From a virus: DNA of 20,011 bases. The notes below the pieces were generated by a model. That model did no database searches. It had not been told where the DNA came from and saw only the letters and a list, made by a program, of their open reading frames with translations. The position numbers and the translations under genes were made by a program. Shown piece after piece: positions 1,285 to 19,117 of the stretch. How positions within the stretch are numbered: position 1 is the first letter of the stretch; every line of letters starts with the position of its first letter. The DNA lies in the IMG/VR virus record IMGVR_UViG_3300036651_000048, positions 1 through 20,011 of that record; one strand, given 5' to 3'.

Positions 1285-1959
1285 ATGGCGGGACAGTTAA
1301 CCGCTCTCGGCGCGCAGTCGCTGGTTAATGCCGTTGGTGGCATTGTCCCGCCGCACATCGGGACGACGGCACCCACGTGGCAGCCGGGCCTGTACTGGAT
1401 CAACACCACGGCAGGCGCGGTCCTGGAGTACTGGAACGGGTCCGCGTGGGTGGCGGGCACCGAGCCGCTGTACATCGCCCTGTTAACCGGCGACCCGTCA
1501 GTCTCAGGGCCGGGCGGCGGCTACGCGCTGAACATCTCCGACCTGATCGAGGACACCACGTCCGGGTACGCGCGCCAGGCCGTGACGTTCGCCGCCCCGG
1601 TGCCGTACCTGTCGGCCACGACCTACACCTCGGGCCAGAAGGTCATCTACCAGGAGTTCGTCTACCAGTGCGCGGTGGGCAGCATCAGCGGTACCGCCCC
1701 GTCCGGCACGGCGACCAACAACACCGACTGGACGTACATCGGCCCGGCCTACCCGGCGTCGGCCGCGAACTCGAACACCCTGACCTTCAGCTACTCGGCC
1801 GCGCAGCCGTTCCCGGTCCAGTGGGCCGCGCTGGTCACCGCTTCGACCGGCACCACCGGGCTGCTGAAGTACCTGTGGACGCTGCCCCAGCCGCAGCAGG
1901 TGGCCGGGTCGCAGTCGATCCAGATTGGGGCCGGGATGGCAGCCCTGATGCAGGCGTGA
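1285..1959 (+). CDS. Phage structural protein, 224 aa, with a carbohydrate-binding-like module
   Basis: ATG 1285 follows AAGGA with a six-base spacer, nine bases after the previous stop. The N-terminus is beta-rich and includes a fibre-like phrase, LYWINTTAGAVLEYWNGSAW. Residues about 108-156 look like a small carbohydrate-binding (CBM5/12-type) module: SATTYTSGQKVIYQEFVYQC followed some 20 residues later by NNTDWTYIG, i.e. the Y-x-x-G-x-x-V-x-Y-x-x-x-x-Y-x-C/A ... W spacing. The last 60 residues are Ala/Ser/Thr-rich. Its stop overlaps the next GTG (GTGA at 1956-1959). TTA codons occur at codons 5 and 67. Composition and position suggest a virion decoration or minor head/neck protein, which is inference. 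Confidence 0.7.
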   Translation: MAGQLTALGAQSLVNAVGGIVPPHIGTTAPTWQPGLYWINTTAGAVLEYWNGSAWVAGTEPLYIALLTGDPSVSGPGGGYALNISDLIEDTTSGYARQAVTFAAPVPYLSATTYTSGQKVIYQEFVYQCAVGSISGTAPSGTATNNTDWTYIGPAYPASAANSNTLTFSYSAAQPFPVQWAALVTASTGTTGLLKYLWTLPQPQQVAGSQSIQIGAGMAALMQA

Positions 1960-2501
1960 ACATCAGCGAAGTCCAGATCCTGCTGGCCGCGCCCCAGGCG
2001 GCGGGCGGCTACCAGTCACCCGGCGCGGTCTACAACTCGCTGGGCCGGTGGGCATCGACCACGCAGCTCAACGCGGGCGTCCCGCTGAACAACCTGTTCC
2101 CCGACCTCACGGGACCGCAGAACGCGGCCGGGCAGGTGGACTACCAGTGCCTGTTCGTCTACAACTCCGACAACGCAGCCACGCTGGCGAATGTGTACGC
2201 GTGGATTCCGTCCACGAGCGTCGTCGGCGCGGTGCAGTGGGCTACCGGCGCGGACACGACAGTGCCGAGCGGCTACAGCGTGACGGGGACCCCGCAGGCT
2301 GGCTACATCTCCTCACCGACCATCGCCCCCTCGACGGTGCAGTCCTGGTTCGGCGGTGTGGGGCAGGCGTCCCAGGGTGCCCGCCTGCCGTCCATCGGCC
2401 CCGGCGAGGTCGCGGCCTTCTGGGTCCGGCGCACGGCGGTGAACAGCCAGGCGTTCTCGGGCGCGGGCTTCGGCCTCCAGGTCACATTCGACGTGGCGTA
2501 G
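1956..2501 (+). CDS. Hypothetical phage structural protein, 181 aa
   Basis: GTG 1956 overlaps the preceding TGA by four bases, which marks the start. Longer in-frame extensions upstream are shadows of the previous gene. The product starts VNISEVQILLAAPQAAGGYQ and is Ala/Gly/Ser/Val-rich with many aromatic-alternating stretches (YNSDNAATLANVYAWI, GFGLQVTFDVA), consistent with a beta-sandwich. It contains GPGEVAAFWVRRTAVNSQAF, a phrase style seen in virion surface or collar proteins. There is no signal peptide, membrane segment or catalytic motif. Close coupling to the gene before it suggests the two products assemble together. I do not recognise the family. Confidence 0.65.
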   Translation: MNISEVQILLAAPQAAGGYQSPGAVYNSLGRWASTTQLNAGVPLNNLFPDLTGPQNAAGQVDYQCLFVYNSDNAATLANVYAWIPSTSVVGAVQWATGADTTVPSGYSVTGTPQAGYISSPTIAPSTVQSWFGGVGQASQGARLPSIGPGEVAAFWVRRTAVNSQAFSGAGFGLQVTFDVA

Positions 2502-2504
2502 CCG

Positions 2505-2648: not shown

Positions 2649-2660
2649 TCTAGGAGCGTC

Positions 2661-3626: not shown

Positions 3627-4168
3627 TGTCACGGATGGACTACAAGCGCGGGAGGTACAACCCGGACTCCGAGACCGACGCGATGTTCGCCGCCATGCGC
3701 GGCTGGCAGAGCGTTGACGGCGACTGGGTGAACTACTACCGCTTCGATGAGGCGCACAGCGAGATCCACCCGATCTACGACGAGCCGACAGGCAACGGGC
3801 TGATGTGGCTTGCGCCCGTCCGCGTCGAGGCCCTGCACGTCACGCACGTCGAGGGCGCGAACGAGGACTCCGACCGTGGCTTCTACTACAACGACAACCT
3901 GGACGTCACCGTCCCGTTCGACCTGTTCATCCAGGCTGGCATGTCTAAGGCTGACATCGACACGGGCAACTACCTCAAGGACCGCGTCGTCTACGATAGG
4001 AAGGTCTTCCGTATTAAGAGCATCTCTATTCGTGGCCAGATGCAGCAGCGGGACACCATCGTCGGCATCACCGGCACCCAGCTCAAGCCTGACGAGCTGG
4101 TCTGGGATCAGCAGTTCGCGCAGTGGGCTCCGGGCGGGGCCTTCACCCTTCAGGGAGGTACCCAGTGA
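3626..4168 (+). CDS. Probable head-closure (stopper) / neck protein, 180 aa
   Basis: ATG 3626 overlaps the preceding TGA by one base. The product starts MSRMDYKRGRYNPDSETDAM and contains a beta-barrel-like C-terminal half: VPFDLFIQAGM, then DRKVFRIKSISIRGQMQQRD, then TIVGITGTQLKPDELV. The signature of a strand pair followed by 'I.G.QL.PDEL' at the C-terminal end resembles phage head-closure or stopper proteins that seal the portal channel below the adaptor. The position directly after the probable adaptor supports this. Codons at about 3991-4035 (GAT AGG AAG ... CGT ATT AAG ... TCT ATT CGT) are AT-rich compared with the rest of the gene. Other neck or minor tail roles are possible. Confidence 0.5.
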   Translation: MSRMDYKRGRYNPDSETDAMFAAMRGWQSVDGDWVNYYRFDEAHSEIHPIYDEPTGNGLMWLAPVRVEALHVTHVEGANEDSDRGFYYNDNLDVTVPFDLFIQAGMSKADIDTGNYLKDRVVYDRKVFRIKSISIRGQMQQRDTIVGITGTQLKPDELVWDQQFAQWAPGGAFTLQGGTQ

Positions 4169-4797
4169 CCACGCCGCCAACCACCGGCACCACCAACTGG
4201 GGCGGCCCGCTCGACACCTACCTGGCCGCGCTCCAGGCCGAGGCCGACAACAACGGGGTCAACTTCGCGGACCACATCTCGGCCGCGCCAGCCGGGACGC
4301 CGTTAACCGACCCGCATGGTGACCGGGCCTACGCGCTCGGCCTGATGGCCCCGATCCAGCAGCTCGTCAACCAGCCGAGCGGCTTCGTGCAGCTCGGGCC
4401 GGGCGGCAGGCTGCCAGGCCGTCAGTGGCAAGACCTGCGCCCGGTATCGGGCTCGTTCGCGCCGCCGACCGGGCACTACCCACCGCAGTACCGGACCACC
4501 CTGGACGGGAAGATCGAGCTGGCAGGCTACGTGGTCATCTCTGCCGCGACGTACAACGGCGTGACTATCTTCCCTGCGGCGCTCCCAGCAGACTGCCGCC
4601 CGAATCTCGACGTGGACATCCTGGTCACGCTCAGCGCGGCCGGAAGCGCTCCCTCAGCCGCCACGCCCATGATGACCATCGCGGCGGACGGGACCATGAC
4701 CTTCAGCGGGCTTCCGGGCGGCCTGGCACCGGGCACCCTCGTCGGGATCAAGGGATGGTTCCCGCTGGACTCCTACTACGAACTCTTGCAGAGCTAG
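4165..4797 (+). CDS. Fibre-like virion protein, 210 aa, encoded among neck genes
   Basis: GTG 4165 overlaps the previous stop by four bases and has AGGGAGG six bases upstream. The N-terminal half (TNWGGPLDTYLAALQAEADN, later SGFVQLGPGGRLPG) has the low-complexity, Gly/Pro-rich look of the shaft-attachment region of actinophage minor tail proteins. The C-terminal half (about 92-208) looks like a beta-sandwich tip. It has an aliphatic strand (KIELAGYVVI), then LPADCRPNLDVD, then MMTIAADGTMTFSGLPGG, and ends in a GWFPLDSYYEL strand. The same plan (strand, LP-x-x-YxP, dG strand, F/YPL end) is found at the C-terminus of the spike at 14677-16500. It may be a collar whisker or neck fibre; that is inference. 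TTA is at codon 47. Confidence 0.6.
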   Translation: MTTPPTTGTTNWGGPLDTYLAALQAEADNNGVNFADHISAAPAGTPLTDPHGDRAYALGLMAPIQQLVNQPSGFVQLGPGGRLPGRQWQDLRPVSGSFAPPTGHYPPQYRTTLDGKIELAGYVVISAATYNGVTIFPAALPADCRPNLDVDILVTLSAAGSAPSAATPMMTIAADGTMTFSGLPGGLAPGTLVGIKGWFPLDSYYELLQS

Positions 4798-4799
4798 CT

Positions 4800-5540
4800 A
4801 TGCCCTGGTTATTCAACGAGGACGCGGCGATGAAGGCCCGTCTCCAGGGGCTGCTGGTCCAGGACGCGACCTCGCCCAGCGGCGGCCGGGAGGTCCCGGT
4901 CAGGTACCGGCTGCCGGATGACGAGCTGGCGAACCTGACCTACCCGGTCGTCATCATCGAGCACGCGGGGATCTACCCGGCCCAGGAGCGGATGCACTCG
5001 GGCTACGTCCAGCTCCCGTACGCGCCCGAGGGCAGCACGCCGTACTGGCAGCCGGGCGAGGCGATCTACCCGCTGGCATCCCCGTACTACGCGCCCGTGC
5101 CGACGCCATACAACTTCGACTACCAGGTCACCGTATTCGGCCGGTTCTGGGGCGCGCACATCGCCCCGCTGATCGGGGAGCTGGCAACGCTGTGGCGGCT
5201 GCCCGCGAAGGCCGGGCGGCTGTGGGTCCCGCAGGACAGCACCACCCGGACGATGCGCCTGCTCGGCGGCCCGGAAGAGGGCTATGGCACGGACGAGGAC
5301 GGCAAGAAGCTGTTCAAGGTCGTGTACCTGGTGCGCGTGTTCTCCGAGCTGGTCGAGAACGTGGCGAGCAGCACCGGCTGGGGCGGCAGCCTGACGCCTG
5401 TGAATACGGTGGACATCGACCTCAGCGTCTACGCCTCGCTGGACGATATCGACCTCTCGTCTCCTACGGGCATCCAGGAGAGCATCGGGATTTACAGCGT
5501 CGGCGCGAGCAGCACGGTCAACGTCCAGCAGTCTCCGTAG
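4800..5540 (+). CDS. Probable tail terminator / tail completion protein, 246 aa
   Basis: ATG 4800 lies two bases after the previous stop, with no clear ribosome binding site, so it is probably translated by coupling. The product starts MPWLFNEDAAMKARLQGLLV. Its core has PVVIIEHAGIYPAQERMHSG, YNFDYQVTVFGRFWGAHIAP and an alternating strand LFKVVYLVRVFSELVE. The order of helix, long strand Y-x-V-x-V-F, helix with 'L..LW.LP', 'D.T.R...LLG' and final strand fits the tail-terminator fold, which caps the tube and contacts the neck. Location immediately before the sheath gene agrees. A Ser/Asp-rich tail of about 45 residues is extra relative to the fold. TTA is at codon 4. Confidence 0.55.
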   Translation: MPWLFNEDAAMKARLQGLLVQDATSPSGGREVPVRYRLPDDELANLTYPVVIIEHAGIYPAQERMHSGYVQLPYAPEGSTPYWQPGEAIYPLASPYYAPVPTPYNFDYQVTVFGRFWGAHIAPLIGELATLWRLPAKAGRLWVPQDSTTRTMRLLGGPEEGYGTDEDGKKLFKVVYLVRVFSELVENVASSTGWGGSLTPVNTVDIDLSVYASLDDIDLSSPTGIQESIGIYSVGASSTVNVQQSP

Positions 5541-5627: not shown

Positions 5628-7616
5628 ATGAGCAACTACTCCCGGCCCGGAGTCTTCGTCAACACGAGCCTGACGCCGTTAACCTCCAGCCCCTCCGGGG
5701 TCACGGGCGGGGCGGTGGCTTGCTTCGTCGGCGCGTACAACAGGGGTCCGACGCAGCCCACGCTCGTGACGAGCTGGCAGAACTTCGCCAACTTATACGG
5801 CGGCTTCAACGTCGCCAACGGCTCGCCGCTGGCCTACGCGGTCTGGCAGTACTTCTCCAACGGCGGGTCCGCCTGCTACGTCTACCGGGTCCCGAACACC
5901 GACGCCGTGGTCTCCAGCCTGGCAGTCGGCAGCGTCGAGCCGACCCAGGCCGCGCTGGCTGCGCCCGGGTCTGTCACGCCCACCACGGCGACCTCGGGCG
6001 GCACCGTCGCGGCCGGGACCTACCAGGTCCAGGTCACCTACGTGGACTCCTTCGGTGAGACCACGGCTTCCGCGTCCCACTCGATCGTCACGACCGGCTC
6101 TGCCTCGACCATCACGATCCCCTCGCCGCCCTCCGAGTCCCCGGCGACCGGCTGGTACGCCTACGTCACCCAGGCCGGTGGCAGCACCTACACCCGGCAG
6201 CAGACGGCCGGGTCGCCTACGACCATCGGCACGCCCCTGGTCATCACGGCCCCGCCGACCAGCTCGGGCGCGGCCCCGCCGAGCACGAACACGACCGCCT
6301 CGACCACCTCGGAAGTCGCGAACCTCCTGACCTTCATCTCCAACAGCCCGGGTGCGTACGGCAACACCCTGTACACCGAGATCGTGGCGGGCGCGTCGAG
6401 CCTGAACGACCCGACGTCGGTCTTCACGGTGAACGTCTACCTGGGCGGAACCGCCGCCGCCAACCTGGTGGAGACCTGGCCTGCGGTCTCGCTGAACCCG
6501 GGAAGCGCACGCAACCTCGTGTCCATGATGAACGCCAGCATCGGCGGGTCGAACTTCGTGTCCGCCAAGGTGGCCTTCGCGAGCGGCAGCTACGTCGCGG
6601 GTGACGGCTCCTCGGACCCGATGCCACAGTCCCCGACCGCGCTGACCGGCGGCTCGGATGGCACCGTCGCCCCGTCGCTGGACACCGCGATCACCACCGG
6701 CCTCTCTGCCTCGGGCGGGAACCCGTGGAACTCCCCGGGCCTGGGCAGCCTGTCCAACGTGGTGCTGAACGTCAACCTCCCGGCCGGGCCGTCTGCCGGG
6801 ATCGCGCAAACCGTCCTGAACAACGTCATCACCTGGGCAGAGAACCAGGGGAACGTCTTCGTGATCATCGACGCCCCGTTCGGCGGGGTGCCGCTGCTGT
6901 CGTCCTCGCAGTTGGTCACCAGCTACCAGTCGTACCTGACGACCGGCACGGCGATCAGCGCCTCCCCGAACGCGGCGATCTACGGGCCGTGGCTGTCGAT
7001 CAAGGACCCGGCCTCGGCCGCCCCGACCGCTACCGCGTGGGTCGCCCCGGGCGGCGCGGTGCTCGGCGTGTGGGCGCAGAACGACACGAACTACAACCTG
7101 TCGCACACGCCAGCCGGGACCTCGGCCACGGTCGGCGCGGTCGCGCTGGAGGGGTACTTCACCCCGGCCGACCTCAGCAACCTGGAGACCATGCAGGTCA
7201 ACCCGATCAAGCAGATCCCGGGCTCGGGCCTGTGCGTCTTCGGCGGCCGGACGCTGGGCACCGGGTACCCGAACCGGTACATCAACGTCAGCCGGACCCT
7301 GATGCAGTTCACCACCGACTTCGTGAACATCACCCAGTTCGCGATCTTCCAGAACAACGACCCGAGCCTCTGGCAGTCGATCACCACCGTCCTGTCCAAC
7401 TACCTCATGCAGGCGATGCAGGCGGGGATGCTGGCGAGCACGACCCCCGAGACCTCGTTCTCGGTGGTCTGCGACGGCACGACCACCTCGGCGGCCCAGG
7501 CCCAGGCTGGGATCGTCAACGCGCAGGTCGCGGTGGCCCTGGCTAGCCCGGCCGAGTTCATCATCATCAACCTCAGCCAGATGCAGGGTGGCGGGTCCGC
7601 CACCGTCAGCTCGTAA
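5628..7616 (+). CDS. Contractile tail sheath protein, 662 aa
   Basis: Subunit of the sheath that surrounds the tail tube and contracts on infection. ATG 5628 is chosen because the product then starts MSNYSRPGVFVNTSLTPL, matching the PGV(Y/F)V opening of the family. The N-terminal core is at about 1-104 (ACFVGAYNRGPTQPTL, NFANLYGGF). Residues about 105-229 form a Thr/Ser/Pro-rich insertion with an Ig/Fn3-like pattern (GTYQVQVTYVDSFGETTASA ... GWYAYVTQAG). The core resumes at NSPGAYGNTLYTEI. The conserved C-terminal sheath domain (about 530-655) has RYINVSRTLMQF, FQNNDPSLWQSI and SPAEFIIINLSQMQG. At 662 aa it is near T4 gp18 (659) and much longer than P2 FI. TTA codons are at 18 and 56. The identification is firm. 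Confidence 0.95.
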   Translation: MSNYSRPGVFVNTSLTPLTSSPSGVTGGAVACFVGAYNRGPTQPTLVTSWQNFANLYGGFNVANGSPLAYAVWQYFSNGGSACYVYRVPNTDAVVSSLAVGSVEPTQAALAAPGSVTPTTATSGGTVAAGTYQVQVTYVDSFGETTASASHSIVTTGSASTITIPSPPSESPATGWYAYVTQAGGSTYTRQQTAGSPTTIGTPLVITAPPTSSGAAPPSTNTTASTTSEVANLLTFISNSPGAYGNTLYTEIVAGASSLNDPTSVFTVNVYLGGTAAANLVETWPAVSLNPGSARNLVSMMNASIGGSNFVSAKVAFASGSYVAGDGSSDPMPQSPTALTGGSDGTVAPSLDTAITTGLSASGGNPWNSPGLGSLSNVVLNVNLPAGPSAGIAQTVLNNVITWAENQGNVFVIIDAPFGGVPLLSSSQLVTSYQSYLTTGTAISASPNAAIYGPWLSIKDPASAAPTATAWVAPGGAVLGVWAQNDTNYNLSHTPAGTSATVGAVALEGYFTPADLSNLETMQVNPIKQIPGSGLCVFGGRTLGTGYPNRYINVSRTLMQFTTDFVNITQFAIFQNNDPSLWQSITTVLSNYLMQAMQAGMLASTTPETSFSVVCDGTTTSAAQAQAGIVNAQVAVALASPAEFIIINLSQMQGGGSATVSS

Positions 7617-7626: not shown

Positions 7627-8256
7627 ATGCCATTCAGCCAGTCCGCGTCGATCGCGCACTTAGCGACCGACCCGCTGCGGAACTTCAAGTTCCTGGTGGA
7701 CATCACGGCCAACCCCTCGGGCACGTCCCTGGCTCCCTCGGGGAACACCCTGAGCCTGGGCTTCATGTCGGTGTCGGGGCTGAACGTCAACGTGTCGGTG
7801 ATTGCCTACCGCGAGGGCGGCATGAACACGGTCACGCAGAAGCTCCCGGGCCAGGCCGACTTCTCGCCCATCGTCTTACAGCGGGGCGTGGCTGTCGGTC
7901 ACTCCGAGGACATCAAGTGGCTCAAGGAACTCTTCCAGGTCATCCAGGGCAGCTCGTCCGGGTCCACGGCCGGTAAGGACTTCCGGCAGACCATCGACAT
8001 CCGCGTGCTGGCCCACCCGGTGACCGGGCCGTCCGCGCCCGTGTCCGCGTGGTTCAAGGTGTTCAACGCGTGGCCGACTGCGGTTGCCTACAGCGACCTG
8101 GACGCGGGCACCAACCAGCTCCTGCTGTCGCAGATGACGCTGGCGCACGAGGGCTGGGACTACGCGCTGTCCAGCTCGGTGACGGGCGATGCGACCGACC
8201 CGTCCAAGTCCAGCGGCGGCAGGGCGTTCGGCATCCAGTCAGCGGGCGCTGCATAG
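7627..8256 (+). CDS. Tail tube protein (T4 gp19-like), 209 aa
   Basis: Forms the rigid inner tube through which DNA passes. ATG 7627 follows TAAGGAG with a six-base spacer, where the sheath stop TAA forms part of the ribosome binding site. Family landmarks run in order: DPLRNFKFLVDI, GFMSVSGLNVNVSVIAYREG, KLPGQADFSPIVLQRGV, IDIRVL ... AWFKVFNAWPTAVAYSDLDA and LAHEGWDYALS near the end. This is the gp19-like tube family shared by myoviruses and extracellular contractile injection systems. The RNFKF start, YREGG loop and NAWP motif are especially close to the injection-system branch. TTA codons are at 12 and 84. Confidence 0.94.
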   Translation: MPFSQSASIAHLATDPLRNFKFLVDITANPSGTSLAPSGNTLSLGFMSVSGLNVNVSVIAYREGGMNTVTQKLPGQADFSPIVLQRGVAVGHSEDIKWLKELFQVIQGSSSGSTAGKDFRQTIDIRVLAHPVTGPSAPVSAWFKVFNAWPTAVAYSDLDAGTNQLLLSQMTLAHEGWDYALSSSVTGDATDPSKSSGGRAFGIQSAGAA

Positions 8257-9326: not shown

Positions 9327-9328
9327 CA

Positions 9329-10210: not shown

Positions 10211-13200
10211 CGGCGAGTTCAACGCGGGCGCGGGCGGGCTGCTGGGGACCAATGACCTCCAGCAGTCGATCGACACGTTCAAGAGCGCAGTCGATGACCT
10301 GAAGTCCACCGTCGCCAACCTCGGGACGTCGATGGGCAGCGGGATGCTCCGACACCCGGCCATGGGGATGCTGTCCGAGGGCCAGACCTTCACCAGGGGG
10401 TCGCTGAACGGCATGGCCATGGGGGGCAACGGCTCCTTCCTGACAAGCTCTCAGCAGCGCGGTGCGGTCATCCTCGGCCAGGGCCAGGGTGGCAGCCAGG
10501 GGTCCTCCTCCCCGACGCCCACGATGAACGACACGGCGTCTGGCGGGGGTGCCAACGGCGGCGGTTCCTCCTTCGGCGGTCCTCGCGGCGGCGGCGGCAG
10601 CGGGTCCGGCAGCTCGGGCTCGTCCGGCAGCTCGGGCAGCGCCAGCCCGCCGCCCACGATGGGCTCCACGGCAGCAGGCGGCGGTGCCAACGGCGGCGGT
10701 GCCACGTTCGGCGGCGGCTCAGGCGGTGGTCCTGGCGGCCCTGGTGGTCCCACAGGCCCGATCGGCGGTCCTCGCGGCCCGGGGATGGGTGCCACGCCCG
10801 CGTCGTTCCTCAGCCGTGCTGGGGGCGCGGCCATGGGCGGGTTCGCCGCCATGGGGATGAGCCAGTACGGCAACCAGCTCCTGTTCAACGCCTACGGCCA
10901 GCAGATGGCCGCCACGTACGGCTACGGAGCCCAGTCCGCCCAGAACAACGCCTTCGGCAACGGCAACGGCATGGTCAACGCGGCGGCGGCGGGCAGCGCC
11001 CAGGGCGCGGCGTCCGAGTTCACCACGCTCAACCAGATGGCCGGTGGCGGCGCGATCGGCTACGGCAACGCGCTCCAGGCGGCGAACGCCTTCGCCTTCA
11101 CCAACCAGGGCCTGGGCGCGGCCGGGGGAGCGCAGCTCGCCTCGTCGGTGTACAACCCGGTCAATTCCCTGCGGATGCAGATGCTCACGGGCGTCAGCTC
11201 GATCAACCCGCAGTCCGGCCAGATGAACAGCATGGCAAGCGTCATCGGCGGCCTGGCCTCGGACAACTACCTCGGCGGTGGCGGCTACAACTCCCGCACG
11301 GGGACGTTCCGCCAGTCGGCGCTGAACGCATCATTCACGCCCGGCCGTGGCACGAGCTACATGAACCTCCAGTCGCTGGGATACAACCCGACGCAGATCT
11401 CCGACATCCAGTCCATGACGAGCCAGGCCAACCAGGCGGCGAACCGGGGCCACACGTCTCTCTCGAACGTGCTGGGCACGATGGGCCACGCGGAGTACGG
11501 CTCCGAGGGCCAGATCCAGTCGGCCGACGCCCAGCTCAAGAAGTGGGGCATCAACCTCTCCACGATCCAGAAGCAGGGCAACTTATCCAGCCTGGGCATG
11601 GCCCAGTCGCAGAGCCAGTCGAGCACCTTCAACGAGGCCATCTCGGGTGCCACCTCGGTGATGACGAAGTTCACCCAGGCGGTCAACTACTTCCTGGACA
11701 AGACCGGGCTCAACAAGGCCATGGGGCTCGGCGGGGGCATCTCCGCAGGCGCAGCGTCCACCGGGCTCAGCGGCATCATGTCCGGTATCGCGGGCACGGC
11801 CATGTCCATCGCGAGCATCGGCGGCGGCGCGGCGGGCGTGTCCACGGCCCAGCCGATGACGAGCCAGGGCAGCAGGCCCGGCAGCTCGCTGTCCGGCGTT
11901 TCCGGGTCGGCCGCGACGGCGGTCAAGGATGCCGAGGGGCAGGTCGGCAAGCCCTACGTCTACGGCGGCAGCAACCCGCAGACCTCGTTCGACTGCTCGG
12001 GCCTGGTCATGTGGGCCTACGGCCAGGCGGGCGTCAAGCTCCCGCGCACGAGCCAGCAGCAGTGGGCGGCGCTGAAGAACAAGTCCGTCCCGGCGAACCA
12101 GGCCCGCGAGGGCGACATCGTCTTCCAGGCCGGATCGGACGGCACCGCGCAGGCCCCGGGCCACGAAGCCCTCATGATCTCCAGCAAGCAGATCGTGGAA
12201 GCGCCGTACACGGGCGCGAACATCCGCATCCGGGCGTACAACCCGAACGAGTGGCAGCACGTCGGCCGCCCGGTGGGCAAGGGCGGCGGCAGCGGCAGCT
12301 CGTCGGTGTCCGGCACGCAGACCGGCAGCACGTCGTCCTCGCTGGGGGCGGGCAACTCGGGGGTCGGGAACTACGGCTCGACTGAGGAAGTCGATGCTGT
12401 CGCCAGCGCCCTGGGCGGGGGCACGTCCGGCGGTGCCACGCACCTCATGTCCACGACGACCAACGGGTCAGCCACATCCGGCAGCAAGGGCAACCTCAAC
12501 GTCGGGACGGCGGGCGGCGGCGGTGCGGGCGCGAACAAGGCGCTCGCGAAGAAGATGGCCGCGCAGATGTACGGCTGGAGCGGGAGCGAGTGGTCGCAGG
12601 GCCTGGACCCGCTGTGGACGCAGGAGTCCGGGTTCCGCAGCAACGCCCAGAACCCGACCAGCACCGCCTTCGGCATCGCCCAGTTCCTGGACAGCACGTG
12701 GGGTCCGTACGGGCCGAAGACGTCCAACCCGGGGCTCCAGATCAAGTACGGCCTCGAATACGTCCACAACCGGTACGGCAACCCGCTCGCCGCCGAGGCG
12801 CACGAGAAGCAGTACAACTGGTACGGCACCGGCACCCGGAGCGCGGCCCCGGGCATGGCGCTGGTGGGTGACCGTGGACCGGAGCTGATCGACCTGGGCG
12901 GCGGCGGCCAGCAGATCCACAACGCGCAGGCGACCTCGAACATCCTGCGTGGCAACTCGGCGCTCCCGGCTCAGTCACCGTGGACGGCCTCGCCCGGCCA
13001 GCAGCTCCTGCTCGACACGATGACCCCGGCCAACAATCACGCGCGGGGCTCGGGCGGCGGCGTGACCATCACGCTGACGGTCGAGAAGGGCGCGTTCCAG
13101 CTCACCGGCACCGGGATCAGCGGCTCGTCCGATGTCCAGTCGCTGGCCGACGCGTTCGGCCAGGCGGTCGAGTCCCGCCTCCAGAAGTCCGAGCTGATCC

Positions 13201-13229
13201 GGAACATCGCGAGGGGGAACACGGGCTGA
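10203..13229 (+). CDS. Tail tape measure protein with NlpC/P60 and lytic transglycosylase domains, 1008 aa
   Basis: Sets tail length and, on ejection, helps open the cell wall. GTG 10203 has GGAG six bases upstream. Residues about 95-205 are Gly/Ser/Pro low complexity. Residues 205-580 are Gln/Asn/Ala/Gly-rich with a hydrophobic stretch at about 505-545. An NlpC/P60 peptidase spans about 575-690: Cys598 in FDCSGLVMWAYGQAG, His654 in PGHEALMISS, followed by VEAP. A transglycosylase spans about 780-880: KMAAQMYGWSGSEW, catalytic Glu808 in LWTQESGF, AFGIAQFLDSTWG, IKYGLEYVHNRYG and a final NWYG. The C-terminus has ALVGDRGPELIDLGG, frequent near tape-measure ends, and an amphipathic tail. Carrying both a peptidase and a glycosidase is typical of actinophage tape measures. 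The only TTA is codon 461. Identification is firm; the tail length it would give cannot be read from sequence. Confidence 0.93.
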   Translation: MASGEFNAGAGGLLGTNDLQQSIDTFKSAVDDLKSTVANLGTSMGSGMLRHPAMGMLSEGQTFTRGSLNGMAMGGNGSFLTSSQQRGAVILGQGQGGSQGSSSPTPTMNDTASGGGANGGGSSFGGPRGGGGSGSGSSGSSGSSGSASPPPTMGSTAAGGGANGGGATFGGGSGGGPGGPGGPTGPIGGPRGPGMGATPASFLSRAGGAAMGGFAAMGMSQYGNQLLFNAYGQQMAATYGYGAQSAQNNAFGNGNGMVNAAAAGSAQGAASEFTTLNQMAGGGAIGYGNALQAANAFAFTNQGLGAAGGAQLASSVYNPVNSLRMQMLTGVSSINPQSGQMNSMASVIGGLASDNYLGGGGYNSRTGTFRQSALNASFTPGRGTSYMNLQSLGYNPTQISDIQSMTSQANQAANRGHTSLSNVLGTMGHAEYGSEGQIQSADAQLKKWGINLSTIQKQGNLSSLGMAQSQSQSSTFNEAISGATSVMTKFTQAVNYFLDKTGLNKAMGLGGGISAGAASTGLSGIMSGIAGTAMSIASIGGGAAGVSTAQPMTSQGSRPGSSLSGVSGSAATAVKDAEGQVGKPYVYGGSNPQTSFDCSGLVMWAYGQAGVKLPRTSQQQWAALKNKSVPANQAREGDIVFQAGSDGTAQAPGHEALMISSKQIVEAPYTGANIRIRAYNPNEWQHVGRPVGKGGGSGSSSVSGTQTGSTSSSLGAGNSGVGNYGSTEEVDAVASALGGGTSGGATHLMSTTTNGSATSGSKGNLNVGTAGGGGAGANKALAKKMAAQMYGWSGSEWSQGLDPLWTQESGFRSNAQNPTSTAFGIAQFLDSTWGPYGPKTSNPGLQIKYGLEYVHNRYGNPLAAEAHEKQYNWYGTGTRSAAPGMALVGDRGPELIDLGGGGQQIHNAQATSNILRGNSALPAQSPWTASPGQQLLLDTMTPANNHARGSGGGVTITLTVEKGAFQLTGTGISGSSDVQSLADAFGQAVESRLQKSELIRNIARGNTG
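10518..10715 (+). repeat. Imperfect direct repeat in glycine-rich part of the tape measure
   Basis: Two copies, starting at 10518 and 10653 (135 bases, 45 codons apart), each encode the pattern PTM-x-x-TA-x-GGGANGGG-x-x-FGG. Copy one reads TASGGGANGGGSSFGG and copy two TAAGGGANGGGATFGG. Between them lies a Gly-Ser tract with repeated SGS units. The arrangement points to an in-frame duplication in a flexible linker. Confidence 0.7.
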
Positions 13230-13507: not shown

Positions 13508-13516
13508 GGAGGCGAC

Positions 13517-14677
13517 GTGCCCTTACCCGTTGGACCCGTCGTCTACCAGATCTACGTCAACGGGACCCTCGTGTCGGACCCAGCGCTGGACGTCTCGATT
13601 GAGCAGACGTGGGGATGCCACGACATCTTCACCGTCCGGATCGAGTACAACCGGGGCTACCCGATGAACTCGATCGTGCCGTGGGCGGACAATGCGCCCG
13701 TCTCAGTTGTCTGGGGCAGGCGGCCGAACGCCCTCCAGACCTGGTATGGCTACGTCAACCACCACGAGCTGAAGAGCAACGCGGACTCCGGAACCCATAA
13801 CCTCCAGTACACGTACTATCTCATCGGCACGTCGAAGCCGATGAACACCGAGAACAGCTACGTCTGGGGCAACGTCAGCCCGACCTACATCGCGAAGCGG
13901 CTCGCGCTCAAATACCACCTGCGCAGCGTGCTGACCTCCACCACCTGGGTCCTCCAGAACGAAACCCAGGCGAACATGTCCGACTTCGCTTACCTGAACT
14001 ACATCGCGGACAAGACCGGCTTCCGGTTCTGGGTGAGCGGCGGCACGCTCTACTTCATCGACCCGGCCGTGATCCTGGCCGGGACCTCGCGGCAGGCGGT
14101 CCCGTCCTACCGCCAGGACAAGTCGATGACCCAGCAGGACACGATGCGGGACTTCGAGCTGCTGCGCGGTGACAACCTGCCCGGCTCGACGCTGGCCCAG
14201 CGGCAGATCTACGGCATCGACCAGACCTCCGGGCACTTGTTCGGCGCGGGCACCGGCAGCGGGAACGTGACGAAGGTCAACACGGCCCGCGTAGCCCAGT
14301 CCTGGGGGGAGGCCAACCGCGTCATCAAGGCGTGGCAGGGCCTGAGCCAGTTCTGGATCGGGGCGCAGGCCGAGCTGTTCGGGGAGAGCCTGATCTACCC
14401 GGGCAAGGTCGTCTACCTCAACGGGACGGCGCTGCCGGGCGGCAACATCGGCTACTGGCTCGTGACGAGCGCCAAGCACATCCTGACGTCCTCATACACC
14501 GGGGTGCCGACAAACGACAAGTACGTCACGCAAGCCGTTCTCATGCGCAACTCTTCCGCGACAGTCCCGGTGATCCGGGGCCTGAACGTGGTCAGCCCCG
14601 AGTTCGTGACGTGCAGCCCCAGCAACGGGGTCTGGTATTCGAGCAGCCTCCAGACCATTTACGACGGGGTGAACTGA
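13517..14677 (+). CDS. Baseplate hub protein (gpD / gp27-like), 386 aa
   Basis: GTG 13517 follows AAGGAGG, nine bases after the LysM gene stop. The product starts VPLPVGPVVYQIYVNGTLVS and has the hub layout. A first beta-barrel has SIEQTWGCHDIFTVRIEYN and APVSVVWGRRPNALQTWYGY. A middle domain has ISPTY-like NVSPTYIAKRLALKYHL and MSDFAYLNYIADKTGFRFWV followed by GGTLYFIDP. A second barrel near the end has GESLIYPGKVVYLNGTALPG and YWLVTSAKHIL. The phrase 'S.faFL..la...Gf.f....g.lyf.dp' is the hallmark of gpD/gp27/VgrG-N hub domains, which form the trimer below the tube. The adjacent spike gene supports the role. TTA is at codon 3. Confidence 0.85.
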   Translation: MPLPVGPVVYQIYVNGTLVSDPALDVSIEQTWGCHDIFTVRIEYNRGYPMNSIVPWADNAPVSVVWGRRPNALQTWYGYVNHHELKSNADSGTHNLQYTYYLIGTSKPMNTENSYVWGNVSPTYIAKRLALKYHLRSVLTSTTWVLQNETQANMSDFAYLNYIADKTGFRFWVSGGTLYFIDPAVILAGTSRQAVPSYRQDKSMTQQDTMRDFELLRGDNLPGSTLAQRQIYGIDQTSGHLFGAGTGSGNVTKVNTARVAQSWGEANRVIKAWQGLSQFWIGAQAELFGESLIYPGKVVYLNGTALPGGNIGYWLVTSAKHILTSSYTGVPTNDKYVTQAVLMRNSSATVPVIRGLNVVSPEFVTCSPSNGVWYSSSLQTIYDGVN

Positions 14678-16500
14678 TGGCCAGCGGCAACGGGGGCGTG
14701 TACTTACGTACGGCCGGTGAGAGCCCCGTCCGGCAATGGTGGGGGATCTACTACGGCTACATCGCCGTCAACCAGGACCCGCTCAACACCGGCCGGGTGA
14801 AGTTACGCGTCCCGCAGATCTTCGGCAACACCACCTCCGGGTGGGCGTCCCCGATGGTGCCGGTGACCTACATCCCGAAGGTCGGCACGGCGGTCACCGT
14901 GATGTTCGTCGGTGGCGACCCGACGCAGCCGGTGTGGTTCGGGAACTTCGCCGTGGCCGGGTCGGGCATGGTCCTCACCGGGATCACCACGCCCAGCGAC
15001 ACCCCCAGCCCTGTGCCGCCCGTAGGAACCATCTACTACCAGCTCGACAGCAACAACAACATCCAGGGGCAGTACGAATGGAACGGCGCGGGCTGGGTCG
15101 AATACTTCATCGGCGGCAACTTCATAACCGGTGACTCCATCAACTCCGCACTGTTATCCGGCGCTGGTCTTAGCGCAGGGACCATCGGGCTAGGCGCACT
15201 TGACAACTTAACCGCCAGTGGCATGACCCTGTATGAGGGCACCGTCGCCGCCGCCGATGTCATCGTGTCCGGGCCATCGGGTGGCCTCTTCATCTACGGC
15301 ACTGGCGGCACGCTCGTCCAGACCTTCAGCAACGTAGGCACGTTCACCTGGAAGTGCCCGCCCGGCGTGACCACGGTCTACGTCGAATGCTGGGGAGCTG
15401 GCGGCGGCGGTGGCCGTGGCAACGAGCCTTCCGACGACGGCGGTACCGGCGGCGGTGGCGGTGAGTACGGCGCGAACGCCGCGTACACCGTGGTGCCGGG
15501 CTCGACCTACACATTCGTGATCGGATCAGGCGGCTTCGGCGGGCATACGGGCAGCTCGTCCGGTGGGCCGGGCGGATTCACCCTGTTCGACACGACGGGG
15601 GTCGGCGTTCAGGCCAACGGCGGCAACGGCGGTGCGCCCGGCGGGACCGGGGGAGGCGCGGGGACTGGCGGCACCGGAGGCGGTGCGCCCATTGCCTTCC
15701 CGGGCGGCAAGGGTAACCCCTACACCTTCCCGGCCCAGCATGGCATGGGTGGCGGCGCGTCAGGTGGCCCGGACGGACCCGGCCAGGGCAACAACACGGA
15801 CTCGCGGTCGGGTAACCCCGGTGGCCCCGATGCCGGTCCTGGTGGAGACGGCGGGTCTTCGGTCGGCCCGACTGCCGGTTCCAAGCCGCCTGCGCCAGGC
15901 GGCGGTGGCGGTGGCGGTGGCACCTCGGGCAACAGCGCCGCCGATGGCGGGGCCGGGGCACACGGGCAGATCCGGCTGACCTACACCGCATCGGCGGCCA
16001 ACCTCACCGGGTCCATCACGGGCCAGGCGGGCGTAGACCCGGTCAGCGGCGCGGCGGTACCCGAGGGCGCGAAGTTCGACAACCTGACGGTCGGCACGCA
16101 GCTCACCGCGACCGGCGGCACCATCACCAACCCCACGGTGGTCACGACCGACACCTGGCACGAGACGGGCGGCCTGGAAAGCGGGTGGGGCAAGGGGTCC
16201 GGGTTCTTCAAGTACACCCTGCTGCCGAACAACATGGTGGCAGTGTGCGCCCAGGGGCTGACCATAGGCACGGTTGCCGATACCACCCCGATCCTGTCCG
16301 CAGCCAACGGCCTCCCGCCTGCCTACCAGCCGACCACCCCCAAGTCCCTCGTGGCCGACACGAACAACATCAAGGCGGGTAGCGCCACCTACGAGAACGC
16401 GAGGCTCACGTTCAACACCGATGGATCAGTGATCATCAGCGGCTTCAACCTGAACGCGACGTACTGCAACCTCAACGGCATATTCCCCCTCGGCTTCTAG
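14677..16500 (+). CDS. Baseplate spike with gp5-like OB domain and glycine-rich adhesin-like region, 607 aa
   Basis: ATG 14677 overlaps the hub stop by one base. Residues about 20-95 are an OB-fold: YYGYIAVNQDPLNTGRVKLR, VPQIFG, ASPMVPVTYIPKVGTAVTVM and DPTQPVWFGNF, as in the gp5/gpV/VgrG spike. A linker with QYEWNGAGWVEYF follows. Residues about 220-437 are glycine-rich, starting VYVECWGAGGGGG (Cys238) and containing many GGxGG runs. This resembles glycine-rich adhesin domains, not the usual beta-helix needle. The C-terminal domain (about 494-607) starts WHETGG, includes LPPAYQPTTPKSLVADT and DGSVIISGF and ends NGIFPLGF, the same plan as the C-terminus of 4165-4797. I see no PAAR gene or tip motif in the window. 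TTA codons are at 10, 43, 160 and 178. Confidence 0.82.
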   Translation: MASGNGGVYLRTAGESPVRQWWGIYYGYIAVNQDPLNTGRVKLRVPQIFGNTTSGWASPMVPVTYIPKVGTAVTVMFVGGDPTQPVWFGNFAVAGSGMVLTGITTPSDTPSPVPPVGTIYYQLDSNNNIQGQYEWNGAGWVEYFIGGNFITGDSINSALLSGAGLSAGTIGLGALDNLTASGMTLYEGTVAAADVIVSGPSGGLFIYGTGGTLVQTFSNVGTFTWKCPPGVTTVYVECWGAGGGGGRGNEPSDDGGTGGGGGEYGANAAYTVVPGSTYTFVIGSGGFGGHTGSSSGGPGGFTLFDTTGVGVQANGGNGGAPGGTGGGAGTGGTGGGAPIAFPGGKGNPYTFPAQHGMGGGASGGPDGPGQGNNTDSRSGNPGGPDAGPGGDGGSSVGPTAGSKPPAPGGGGGGGGTSGNSAADGGAGAHGQIRLTYTASAANLTGSITGQAGVDPVSGAAVPEGAKFDNLTVGTQLTATGGTITNPTVVTTDTWHETGGLESGWGKGSGFFKYTLLPNNMVAVCAQGLTIGTVADTTPILSAANGLPPAYQPTTPKSLVADTNNIKAGSATYENARLTFNTDGSVIISGFNLNATYCNLNGIFPLGF

Positions 16501-16503
16501 CCC

Positions 16504-16531: not shown

Positions 16532-16537
16532 ACAGGA

Positions 16538-16948
16538 GTGTCGATCGAGATTCAGACTCCGTTCCAGCTCACCCCGTCCGGGGCCATCGCGGTCACTACG
16601 GACCCGGGTGTGCAGGCGCAGCAGCATGTGACCTCGCTGGTGTCCACGTCGCCGGGCGAGCGCGTCATGCTGCCCGCCTACGGTGTCCCGCTCGCGGCGC
16701 TGGTCTTCGCCTCGAACGACCCCGTGGTCGTCGCCACCATCGAGCAGGACGTCACGACTGCGCTGGCCGAGTGGGAGCCGAGCATCATCGTGAACTCGGT
16801 CAGCCCGGCAGCGGGCCAGGACCCCTCGCAGGGCGCGGCGATGGTGAACGTGGACTTCCAGGCCGGTGCGACCCCGGGCGCTCCGGGCGCGAGCGTGCAG
16901 ACGGCGACCATCCTCGTCGGCGGAACGGTGGTCTCTGATGACATCTAG
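16538..16948 (+). CDS. Baseplate wedge protein, gp25-like, 136 aa
   Basis: GTG 16538 is the only start near the conserved N-terminus, since a TAG lies 12 bases upstream in frame. The product starts MSIEIQTPFQLTPSGAIAVT. It has the family signatures VTSLVSTSPGERVMLPAYGV (the pGER...P.yG motif), LAALVFASNDP, ALAEWEPSIIVNSVSP (the wEPRi motif, with Ser in place of Arg) and a final strand MVNVDFQAG. gp25-like proteins anchor the first sheath ring to the baseplate and are needed to start sheath growth. Length is normal for the family. The C-terminal 35 residues are Ala/Gly/Thr-rich, and the gene overlaps the J-like gene by 11 bases. No TTA codon. Confidence 0.9.
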   Translation: MSIEIQTPFQLTPSGAIAVTTDPGVQAQQHVTSLVSTSPGERVMLPAYGVPLAALVFASNDPVVVATIEQDVTTALAEWEPSIIVNSVSPAAGQDPSQGAAMVNVDFQAGATPGAPGASVQTATILVGGTVVSDDI

Positions 16949-18452
16949 CAACAACGTTGCCAACGTCTCCCCGGCGTTACAGGTCCCGCAGACCATCGAC
17001 TACACGAGCAAGGACTTCACCGCGTTCATGCAGTCGATGATCGCCTACGCCAAGACGGTCATGCCCGACTGGAACACGGGCTCCGAGGGCGACATGGGCG
17101 TGGCGCTCCTGGAGATGTTCGCCTACCCGCTGGACATCCTGAGCTTCTACGGTGACCGGATCTCCGCTGAGTCCTACCTGCCGACCGCCACACAGCGCCT
17201 GAGCCTGCTTAACATCGCCCAGCTCCTCGGATACACCGTCTCGAACGGGAGCCCGGCTACGGGCACTGTGACGTTCCAGACGGCCAACCCTGGCCCGGCC
17301 GTGGACATCCCTCCGGGGACGCAGGTCGCCTCCAGCTTCAACACGGCCATCGACTCCCCGGTGATCTACGAAATCGACGCCGGGCAGGGCACCTACACGG
17401 TGCCCGAGAACGGCGGCACGCTGACCCTGAAGGTCACCCAGGGCGAGACCACCACCCAGGTCCCGGTCGGGACTTCGACCGGCTTACCCGGGCAGGCATT
17501 CCAGCTCTCGCAGACCGGCATCATCGACGGCAGCACCCAGGTGTTCGTCCAGACCGACGTGAACCCGCAGCAGTGGGCCGCCGTCCAGTACCTCGTGGAC
17601 TCCGGGCCGTCCGACATGGTCTACACCACCTACGTGGACGCCAGCGGACTGACCTGGATCGAGTTCGGGGACAACCTCAACGGGCTCATCCCGTCCCAGG
17701 GCCTGATCATCTACGCCACCTACCGGGTCGGCGTCGGCAGCGCGGGCAACGTCGCGGCCGGTGTCATCGGGGAGATGGTCAACCCGATCGACGGCGTCAT
17801 GGTCGGGGTCCAGGCGGACGGGGTCACCTTCCAGTCCTCGGCCATGGCGGGCGGCTCCGACCCGGAGACCAACGACCAGATCCGGGCCAACGCGCCCGGC
17901 GTCTTCGCGACCCAGCAGCGGGCCGTCAGCGTGGCCGACTTCGAGGCCATCGCCAAGAACGTCCAGGGCGTCAGCGCGGTCAACGTGGTCGCGCAGCACT
18001 CCACGTCGGTCTCGGTCTACGCGCTCGGCCCGGACTACCAGCCCGCCGCCACGGCGCTCCAGAACCAGATCCTGGCCGCCTTCGCGGGCAGGACCCTGGC
18101 CGGTGTGTCGGTCACCTGCACGCAGCCCGCGCTGATCGCGATCGACGTCGGCTCAACTGGCAACCAGGTGCAGCTCCAGGTCGCGGACAACTACCTCCAG
18201 TCCTCCGTCGTCCAGAACGTGCAGACCGCGCTCACCGCGCTGCTCCAGCCGCCGAACGTCTCCTTCGGGCAGCTCGTGACGGTCGGTGAGATCTACCTGA
18301 CCATCCTGGCCATCGCGGGTGTCCAGTGGTGCGTCGTGCCCGTCATCACCCGCGAGGACGTGACCCAGACCGGCACCGCGAGTATCCAGCTCCGCGCCTC
18401 GGAGATCGCCACCCCGGGCACCTTCTACATCACCGCATCGGGAGGCTTCTGA
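16938..18452 (+). CDS. Baseplate wedge protein, J / gp6-like, 504 aa
   Basis: ATG 16938, inside the end of the gp25-like gene, gives MTSSNNVANVSPALQVPQTI and then the conserved opening IDYTSKDFTAFMQSMIAYAK, DWNTGSEGDMGVALLEMFAY. The N-terminal helical part reaches QLLGYTVSNGSPATGTVTF. A beta-rich middle has VDIPPGTQVAS and WIEFGDNLNGLIPSQG. The signature core is GGSDPETNDQIRANAPGVFA followed by QQRAVSVADFEAIAKNVQGV. A C-terminal region has two ferredoxin-like repeats (VSVYALGPD..., ALIAIDVGSTG...). This is the wedge component that forms the iris around the hub and links to gp25 and gpI. Length fits injection-system and actinophage versions. TTA codons are at 14 and 183. It overlaps the next ATG by one base. 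Confidence 0.92.
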   Translation: MTSSNNVANVSPALQVPQTIDYTSKDFTAFMQSMIAYAKTVMPDWNTGSEGDMGVALLEMFAYPLDILSFYGDRISAESYLPTATQRLSLLNIAQLLGYTVSNGSPATGTVTFQTANPGPAVDIPPGTQVASSFNTAIDSPVIYEIDAGQGTYTVPENGGTLTLKVTQGETTTQVPVGTSTGLPGQAFQLSQTGIIDGSTQVFVQTDVNPQQWAAVQYLVDSGPSDMVYTTYVDASGLTWIEFGDNLNGLIPSQGLIIYATYRVGVGSAGNVAAGVIGEMVNPIDGVMVGVQADGVTFQSSAMAGGSDPETNDQIRANAPGVFATQQRAVSVADFEAIAKNVQGVSAVNVVAQHSTSVSVYALGPDYQPAATALQNQILAAFAGRTLAGVSVTCTQPALIAIDVGSTGNQVQLQVADNYLQSSVVQNVQTALTALLQPPNVSFGQLVTVGEIYLTILAIAGVQWCVVPVITREDVTQTGTASIQLRASEIATPGTFYITASGGF

Positions 18453-19117
18453 TGGTCGCTCCTATCTACCCCAGGGCGTTAGTGAGCTGGACCGACCGCA
18501 TCGACGGTACCGACATTGTCTGGGCGGCCGACCCGAACAGGCTCGCGGCCGAGATCATCTCGATCGAGCAGACCCTCGGGTCGATGCCACAGGTCGAGCC
18601 GGACCCGCCGGTCGGCAAGCCGGTGACCTACAGCTCGGTCAGCGCCCGGATCTCCGACGCCATGCTCGGCGGCCAGCTCCCGTACGTCTCCATCACCAAC
18701 GCGAACTTCAAACTCGGCAAGGGCGGCGGGTACTACAACGGCCAGTTCAACACGTTCAACCAGGTGGTCTCGGACAACTGGAATTACTTCAACGGCTCTG
18801 ACATCACCATCCGCGAAGAGGGCGTGTACCTCATCGACGCCTCGCAGTCCTGGGCAAGCAACTCGACCGGCTACGTGATGATGATGCTGGTCATCAACAC
18901 CGCCCGGATGCGCCTCGGCCGGTGGAATTGGGCCGACTTCGACCCGGACGGCACCAGCACCGACTACGCATCCACGGATGTGCACTGGATGGGCACCCTC
19001 AGCGAGGGCGACCGCATCCGCATTGCCTCGCAGAACGCGACCGATAAGAACCCGACGACCGTCACCTTCTCCAACCTGCACGTGCAGTACCTGCGGAAGC
19101 CGCCCCCGGCGTCATGA
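18452..19117 (+). CDS. Minor tail / baseplate-decoration protein with C1q-like C-terminal domain, 221 aa
   Basis: ATG 18452 overlaps the J-like stop by one base and has GGGAGG six bases upstream. The N-terminal part (YPRALVSWTDRIDGTDIVWA, then AADPNRLAAEIISIEQTLGS) is a short tail-protein adaptor that I have seen in actinophage minor tail proteins. After a Pro-rich linker, the C-terminal 120 residues have a C1q/TNF-type jelly-roll pattern: FNTFNQVVSDNWNYF, the paired ITIREEGVYLIDASQSWASN strand, YVMMMLVIN, LSEGDRIRIASQNAT and VTFSNLHVQYLRK. Such domains form trimers at fibre tips and bind sugars or proteins. It lies between the J-like and gpI-like wedge genes, an unusual place for a decoration. 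TTA is at codon 10. Confidence 0.65.
   Translation: MVAPIYPRALVSWTDRIDGTDIVWAADPNRLAAEIISIEQTLGSMPQVEPDPPVGKPVTYSSVSARISDAMLGGQLPYVSITNANFKLGKGGGYYNGQFNTFNQVVSDNWNYFNGSDITIREEGVYLIDASQSWASNSTGYVMMMLVINTARMRLGRWNWADFDPDGTSTDYASTDVHWMGTLSEGDRIRIASQNATDKNPTTVTFSNLHVQYLRKPPPAS

What the first reader, a model, noticed from the sequence alone, without database searches (positions are those of the whole stretch)
1285..19117. Rare TTA leucine codons sit near the 5' ends of most structural genes
Seen: I count 24 in-frame TTA codons in the annotated genes. Ten plus-strand genes carry one within the first 25 codons: 1285 (codon 5), 4800 (4), 5628 (18), 7627 (12), 8300 (11), 9329 (23), 13517 (3), 14677 (10), 16938 (14) and 18452 (10). 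The leftward 50-aa gene has one at codon 4. The 1008-codon tape measure has only one, at codon 461, so the codon is not spread evenly. Known: TTA is the rarest codon in Streptomyces, read by the developmentally timed bldA tRNA, and tends to lie early in the genes it controls. Inference: expression of the virion genes may be tied to host UUA-tRNA level, or the codon may act as a slow 5' ramp. A phage-encoded tRNA-Leu(UAA) elsewhere in the genome is another possibility.
Basis: partly seen in the sequence, partly recalled or inferred. Interest (0 to 1): 0.7.

Follow-up and report, generated by a model that had tools for sequence, protein, structure and literature searches.

The report
Early UUA codons in phage tail genes
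A group of soil viruses that infect actinobacteria places one of the rarest codons of their likely hosts, UUA, near the start of many tail genes, and related viruses keep it there even as the exact position moves, which suggests that making virus particles depends on a scarce transfer RNA.

Summary
All 24 in-frame TTA codons are present at the stated positions. Ten of the 23 on the plus strand lie within the first 25 codons (1.9 expected, p = 2e-6). TTA is also strongly over-used: 23 TTA against 4 TTG and 1 CTA in a genome whose third codon positions are 92% G or C. TTA columns align with leucine in relatives, so the codon is not reassigned.

The pattern recurs. In six distinct lineages of 66-67% GC relatives, 23 of 33 TTA codons are early. 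A 42.5 kb relative has 14 of 27 early, including in replication genes. Sheath codons 15 and 35 are TTA in 8 of 8 contigs. The tube gene has one early TTA, at either of two leucines; the tape measure has one, at one of three neighbouring leucines. TTG, CTT and CTA show no such bias.

Known Streptomyces phages and several relatives avoid TTA almost completely. I found no phage tRNA-Leu(UAA) in the TTA-rich contigs, but all are fragments.

Best reading: early UUA codons are selected to make translation depend on a scarce UUA-decoding tRNA, as bldA does for Streptomyces genes. A slow-start ramp is the main rival. The host is probably actinobacterial, otherwise unidentified.

The parts
1285..1959 (+). 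g2, possible head-associated protein (weak PHROG match); TTA at codon 5 (1297) and codon 67 (1483)
   Evidence: both sites align with Leu in L008
2661..3626 (+). g5, conserved structural-region gene; TTA at codon 50 (2808); orthologues L223 and L228 have TTA at codon 28
4165..4797 (+). g7; TTA at codon 47 (4303); orthologues L109 and L228 have TTA at codon 16
4800..5540 (+). g8, homologue of a LuckySocke minor tail protein; TTA at codon 4 (4809); high-GC relatives lack it here
5628..7616 (+). g9, tail sheath; TTA at codons 18 (5679) and 56 (5793); L109-clade sheaths have TTA at codons 15 and 35 in 8 of 8 contigs
7627..8256 (+). g10, tail tube; TTA at codons 12 (7660) and 84 (7876); relatives have exactly one, at codon 12 or codon 17
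8300..9157 (+). g11, T4_baseplate-family baseplate hub protein (possible tail assembly chaperone); TTA at codon 11 (8330), same aligned column in L109, L111, L224, L226, L227
9329..10210 (+). g12, homologue of a LuckySocke minor tail protein; TTA at codons 23 (9395), 101 (9629), 148 (9770)
10203..13229 (+). g13, tape measure with NlpC/P60 domain; only one TTA, codon 461 (11583); L109-clade relatives have one, at codon 19, 20 or 25
13517..14677 (+). g15, tail protein (PHROG match); TTA at codon 3 (13523); L111 has TTA at codon 36
14677..16500 (+). g16, Phage_base_V/OB-domain spike-like protein; TTA at codons 10 (14704), 43, 160, 178
16938..18452 (+). g18, baseplate wedge (J-type); TTA at codons 14 (16977) and 183 (17484); relatives at codon 24 (L109), 29 (L132), 10 (L108)
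18452..19117 (+). g19; TTA at codon 10 (18479); the 42.5 kb relative G001 has TTA at codon 10 as called
19114..20011 (+). g20, homologue of a LuckySocke minor tail protein, runs off the contig; TTA at codon 144 (19543)
517..669 (-). 50-aa leftward membrane-protein-like ORF, TTA at codon 4; overlaps the start of the next leftward gene (2-520)

Best explanation
The early TTA codons are selected control points. In many independently started phage genes, usually one UUA sits within about the first 25 codons, so ribosomes can pass only if tRNA-Leu(UAA) is available. That would tie production of the contractile tail (and, in relative G001, of replication proteins) to the level of a scarce tRNA, most simply the host's bldA-type tRNA, whose level in Streptomyces rises with development. 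Placing the codon early makes a stall cheap and blocks translation before much protein is made. Shown here: TTA over-use, 5' bias, TTA specificity, conservation per gene with moving positions, and preference for genes with separate rather than overlapping starts. Inferred: that the tRNA is limiting, that it is the host's, and that the outcome is timing or cell-state dependence.
For: 5' bias: window 10/23 early vs 1.9 expected, p = 2e-6; L109 6/7 vs 0.6; L111 5/7 vs 0.55; G001 14/27 vs 3.7, p = 2e-6. TTA is the most 5'-biased codon in the window, in the pooled high-GC relatives and in G001; in G001 CTT 21/137, CTA 7/50 and TTG 4/28 early are at expectation. Over-use: window 23 vs 0.07, L109 clade 33 vs 0.4, G001 27 vs 3.4 expected from TTG x CTA / CTG. 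Conservation in the L109 clade: an aligned Leu keeps TTA 81% of the time, against TTG 57%, CTT 18%, CTA 6%. Position turnover with gene-level retention: tube codon 12 or 17; tape measure codon 19, 20 or 25; baseplate J codon 10, 14, 24 or 29. Synonymous identity near the sheath start equals the rest of the gene, so no wider conserved RNA element explains it. Early TTA in 29/40 genes with separate starts vs 4/18 with overlapping starts, pooled p = 5e-4. Parallel: Streptomyces eCIS clusters are bldA-controlled; 42 of 56 contain a TTA gene (PMC10020575) and slpR has a UUA in its 5' region (PMC8505568). A 5' bias of TTA is described for streptomycetes, not for other actinobacteria (PMC4255298).
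Against: The host is not identified and no expression data exist. Lower-GC relatives, including ones that carry their own tRNA-Leu(UAA), show a weak 5' bias too (1.4-3.6 fold), so part of the bias may be general. The window has 13 further TTA codons outside the first 25 codons, more than a single gate needs. L108 shows no clear early bias (1/5) and L132 little (1/3). In two streptomycete-like genomes the 5' bias of TTA was only about 2 fold and not significant.
Confidence: 0.5

Rival explanations
1. Slow-start ramp: UUA is placed early because it is the slowest codon and the most A/U-rich Leu codon, which spaces ribosomes and loosens mRNA structure in strongly translated virion genes. No dependence on cell state is intended.
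For: Other A- and T-ending codons are also 1.6-1.9 fold enriched early in the window, and CCA, GCA, GTA, ACA, ATA 2.5-3.6 fold in high-GC relatives. Separately started, probably highly expressed genes carry most early TTAs.
Against: TTG, CTT and CTA are not enriched early. In streptomycete-like genomes the most 5'-biased codons are TCA, AAA and ACA, not TTA. TTA is 5-8 fold early-biased and two base changes away from CTC or CTG. Over-use outside the 5' region is not explained.
Confidence: 0.25
2. Phage tRNA supply: the phage encodes its own tRNA-Leu(UAA) and uses UUA as a privileged codon that its own tRNA serves.
For: 116 kb relatives G016, G017 and G018 encode about 30 tRNAs each including Leu(UAA) and use TTA freely; relatives with tRNA arrays lacking Leu(UAA) (LuckySocke, 55 kb contig G012) have almost no TTA.
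Against: No tRNA gene in the window, in L109, L111 or other high-GC contigs, or in the 42.5 kb relative G001. Phages with their own Leu(UAA) show only weak 5' bias, so this does not explain early placement. The rest of these genomes is unseen.
Confidence: 0.15
3. Tolerance: UUA is counter-selected because it stalls ribosomes and persists only near the 5' end where stalling is cheap.
For: Lower-GC relatives L327, L331, L347 and L348 show TTA below expectation in gene bodies with 2.6-3.6 fold early bias.
Against: In the window and the L109 clade TTA is about two orders of magnitude above the expectation from TTG and CTA, also at early sites (10 vs 0.01; 23 vs 0.05), and is conserved at 81%. Relaxed selection cannot produce that.
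Confidence: 0.05
4. Codon reassignment, or a non-coding DNA motif that happens to contain TTA.
For: None found beyond the TTA excess itself.
Against: TTA columns hold Leu in relatives about as often as other Leu columns do (47/92 scored cells with gaps counted for neither). In window, L109 and L111, 21 of 23 TTA triplets within codons 2-25 are in frame. Flanking synonymous sites are not specially conserved.
Confidence: 0.02

Closest known systems
bldA-dependent translational control in Streptomyces (tRNA-Leu(UAA) checkpoint)
   Same: A rare UUA codon near gene starts, retained in particular genes with turnover between orthologues; positional bias reported for streptomycetes (PMC4255298)
   Different: There only a small share of genes carries UUA, many of them regulators; here half of the genes in a virion module carry an early one, at roughly 17-24 times the per-codon density measured in streptomycete-like genomes
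Streptomyces extracellular contractile injection systems (SLP/eCIS) under bldA control (PMC8505568, PMC10020575)
   Same: A contractile tail machine whose production depends on UUA decoding
   Different: There about half of the TTA genes found are regulators and the known dependence runs through slpR/sco4263; here the structural genes themselves carry early UUA and the element is a phage
Streptomyces phage CW39 (PMC13350457)
   Same: TTA-containing phage genes with a suggested bldA link
   Different: Nine TTA genes, HNH endonucleases and hypothetical proteins; no positional bias or conservation mentioned in the passage read
BRock/LuckySocke-type Streptomyces phages (about 112-116 kb, contractile tails)
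   Same: Nearest annotated relatives of the baseplate protein and of the relative G001's DNA polymerase
   Different: They almost completely avoid TTA: LuckySocke 1 vs about 64 expected, BRock 0 vs about 20 in 50 kb

Membership tests
bldA/UUA-type translational checkpoint | TTA concentrated near gene starts | tested here: met
   10/23 in first 25 codons, p = 2e-6; repeated in L109, L111, G001
bldA/UUA-type translational checkpoint | Early TTA retained in orthologues more than other rare Leu codons | tested here: met
   81% retention vs CTT 18%, CTA 6%; sheath codons 15 and 35 in 8/8 contigs
bldA/UUA-type translational checkpoint | TTA rare in the host genome and decoded by a single regulated tRNA | tested here: inconclusive
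   TTA is 0.15-0.21 per 1000 codons in three sampled actinomycete genomes, but the phage's host is unknown
bldA/UUA-type translational checkpoint | Expression lost without the UUA-reading tRNA | not testable with these tools
   needs reporters or infection of bldA mutants
Phage-encoded tRNA compensation | tRNA-Leu(UAA) gene in the phage genome | tested here: inconclusive
   none in the window or 42.5 kb relative; genomes incomplete
General 5' A/U-rich ramp | All A/U-rich Leu codons enriched near starts | tested here: not met
   CTT, CTA and TTG early counts at expectation in G001 and near zero in high-GC contigs; other NNA codons modestly enriched
Codon reassignment | TTA columns align with a residue other than Leu | tested here: not met
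   Leu is by far the most common residue at TTA columns

The most novel reading that the evidence does not exclude
A lineage of actinobacterial phages has placed an early UUA codon across much of its virion and replication genes so that particle production is licensed by the host's developmentally regulated UUA tRNA, the opposite of the TTA avoidance seen in known Streptomyces phages.
Probability: 0.35. Interest if true: 0.85.

Novelty: new variant of a known kind. Interest (0 to 1): 0.68.

Why it matters
The known Streptomyces phages examined here have essentially no TTA, as expected if UUA is poorly translated in growing hyphae. A phage clade that instead keeps an early UUA in gene after gene would be a natural case of module-wide control by one scarce tRNA. 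It would make the idea raised by Hesketh and colleagues (PMC2000904), that UUA codons in highly expressed phage genes could have shaped the bldA checkpoint, directly testable with simple reporters. It could also help explain why some actinobacterial phages are hard to isolate on vegetative lawns, and it offers conserved 5' segments as ready-made sensors of UUA-tRNA activity.

Tried and rejected
Codon reassignment: rejected by alignment. Relics of a low-GC past: rejected because TTG and CTA, which would also be relics, are nearly absent while TTA is conserved. DNA or RNA motif: rejected because TTA near starts is in frame in the high-GC contigs and flanking synonymous sites are not specially conserved; in G001 out-of-frame TTA is common, so the frame test is uninformative there. 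Strict 'one early TTA per gene' rule: early TTAs fall in distinct genes in the window, but not significantly more than chance (p = 0.09). Host search with the g15 alignment in genome contigs found nothing; the baseplate alignment found one Terracoccus locus with no TTA. Searches for longer high-GC relatives through the DNA polymerase found only TTA-poor contigs or the lower-GC group. SCP1 and pSLA2-L plasmids as controls were not held, so segments of genomes of unnamed streptomycete-like species were used. Computing mRNA folding of synonymous variants was left out.
Full report
What the window is. The window is a complete 20,011-base IMG/VR record, linear and probably a fragment, 67% GC. It holds about 20 plus-strand genes of a contractile-tail phage: sheath, tube, a T4_baseplate-family protein, an NlpC/P60 tape measure, a small hub-like protein, an OB-domain spike-like protein, baseplate wedge proteins and homologues of minor tail proteins, plus leftward genes at the left end. 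It has no tRNA gene and no near match among phage records. The nearest annotated relatives by baseplate J protein are Streptomyces phages LuckySocke, Alone3, BRock, GiJojo and pSt2308 at 35-37% identity. One chromosomal relative lies in a Terracoccus genome. The leftmost protein resembles proteins on Nocardia and Cellulosimicrobium plasmids and in a Thermobifida phage. The host is therefore very probably an actinobacterium, not further identified.

The observation. Within codons 2-25 there are 37 Leu codons, of which 10 are TTA, against 1.9 expected from the 23 TTA among 445 Leu codons (p = 2.5e-6). Permuting within genes gives p < 5e-5. Of all sense codons TTA is the most 5'-biased. It is rarer than CTG or CTC, but far commoner than composition allows: 23 TTA against 4 TTG and 1 CTA, where the corresponding A:G-ending ratios elsewhere are 2:110 (Lys), 6:331 (Gln) and 10:171 (Val). 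So two facts need explaining, over-use and early placement.

Is TTA still leucine? Yes. At TTA columns relatives hold Leu in 47 cells, far more than any other residue, and at about the same share as at other Leu columns.

Relatives fall into three regimes. First, avoiders: L002, L003, L007, L008, L009 and Streptomyces phages LuckySocke, BRock, phiC31 and phiSASD1 have none or almost none (LuckySocke 1 against about 64 expected from TTG x CTA / CTG; BRock 0 against about 20 in 50 kb; phiC31 0 against about 6). Second, lower-GC relatives use TTA around or below expectation, with a weak 5' bias (1.4-3.6 fold); three 116 kb members encode about 30 tRNAs each including Leu(UAA). Third, the high-GC group: the window (23 TTA against 0.07 expected), the L109 clade (33 against 0.4) and, less extremely, the 42.5 kb contig G001 of 58-61% GC (27 against 3.4).

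The pattern repeats. In L109 6 of 7 TTA codons are early (expected 0.6, p = 2e-6), in L111 5 of 7 (p = 3e-5), and in G001 14 of 27 (expected 3.7, p = 2e-6). G001 also carries replication genes, and its early TTAs include DNA polymerase (codon 24), DnaB-like helicase (24) and another helicase (15 and 25); a UvsX-like gene has one at codon 27. In G001 the other A/T-rich Leu codons are not early-biased: CTT 21/137, CTA 7/50, TTG 4/28. For six distinct L109-clade contigs pooled, 23 of 33 are early (expected 2.7); that p-value (4e-19) is not phylogenetically independent. L227 is 99.9% and L225 97.3% identical to another member at the sheath gene, and both were left out of the pooling.

Conservation and turnover. 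Within the L109 clade, where sheath DNA identity between distinct members is about 77-91%, an aligned Leu keeps TTA 81% of the time, against 57% for TTG, 18% for CTT and 6% for CTA. That count includes the two near-duplicate contigs. Sheath codons 15 and 35 are TTA in all eight contigs. The tube gene has one early TTA, at codon 12 in L111, L225, L226, L227 and the window and at codon 17 in L109, L223 and L224. In L109, L111, L224, L226 and L227 the tape measure (226-926 codons present) has exactly one TTA, at codon 19, 20 or 25, in three alignment columns; the window's tape measure (codon 461) and that of L108 (300, 500) are exceptions. Baseplate J has an early TTA at codon 14 (window), 24 (L109), 29 (L132) or 10 (L108). 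Keeping the codon per gene while changing the leucine used is what selection for 'an early UUA' predicts and simple inheritance does not. Synonymous identity over sheath codons 1-40 (0.77-0.78) equals that of the rest of the gene, so there is no wider conserved RNA element.

Where in the operon. Pooled over high-GC contigs, early TTA occurs in 29 of 40 genes with a separate start but in 4 of 18 whose start overlaps the upstream gene (p = 5e-4, post hoc and not independent; window alone 7/9 vs 3/8; G001 shows no clear difference). This fits gating at independent initiation points, but also fits a ramp in strongly translated genes.

Controls in bacteria. In 400 kb sampled from each of two genomes with many chaplin genes (streptomycete-like), TTA is 0.16-0.21 per 1000 codons with a 2.0-2.4 fold, non-significant 5' bias; in a third actinomycete the bias is 1.0. 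The most 5'-biased codons in these genomes are TCA, AAA, ACA or CTA, not TTA. The window has 3.6 TTA per 1000 codons. The literature reports a 5' positional bias of TTA in streptomycetes and not in other actinobacteria (PMC4255298).

Interpretation. The evidence supports selection for UUA itself near gene starts. The best mechanism is dependence on a scarce UUA-reading tRNA, most simply the host's bldA-type tRNA. bldA-dependent expression is established for the contractile SLP/eCIS particles, whose regulator slpR has a 5' UUA (PMC8505568), and 42 of 56 Streptomyces eCIS regions contain a TTA gene (PMC10020575). [quoted passage not shown] A 2026 report lists nine TTA genes in phage CW39 and suggests a bldA link (PMC13350457). 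I found no report, in the library searched, of an early UUA conserved across a virion module.

Limits. Lower-GC relatives with their own tRNA-Leu(UAA) also show a slight 5' bias, so some of the effect may be general. A UUA-specific slow-start ramp remains the main alternative.

Noticed in passing
window 9100-9328; also L109, L111, L224, L226, L002, L007 at the same place: The T4_baseplate-family gene g11 is followed by a conserved +1-frame ORF with no start of its own (...RGLEYRATLEEVGALSRFFAGWSRTDLMSLPVRERRYWIRWATYVV...), joined at CTT-TAG, CTT-TAA or GTC-TAG. This resembles a programmed +1 frameshift of the RF2 type in a tail-assembly-chaperone-like gene pair.
   Followed up: partly
window g12 (9329-10210) and g13 (10203-13229); L109, L108, L107: Gene order differs: the minor tail gene g12 precedes the tape measure in the window, L002, L007 and L008, but follows it in L109, L108, L107 and LuckySocke.
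   Followed up: no
L217:16463-19282 (G001) and L221:3239-6046: The family A DNA polymerase of the 42.5 kb relative, and probably that of L221, carries an intein (PF14890 match in L217); LuckySocke and BRock polymerases are shorter.
   Followed up: no
LuckySocke (L004) and G012 (L214) tRNA arrays: Large phage tRNA arrays (30 and at least 24 genes) include Leu(CAA), Leu(UAG) or Leu(GAG) but no Leu(UAA), and these phages avoid TTA; related 116 kb phages with Leu(UAA) use TTA.
   Followed up: partly
window 2-669, minus strand: Two overlapping leftward genes at the contig end; the larger resembles proteins on Nocardia and Cellulosimicrobium plasmids (52-58% identity) and a Thermobifida phage protein.
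   Followed up: no
G017 (L211:6119-6191): ARAGORN calls a tRNA with anticodon TTA (a possible UAA suppressor) in the tRNA array of a 116 kb relative; weakly supported, may be a degenerate tRNA.
   Followed up: no
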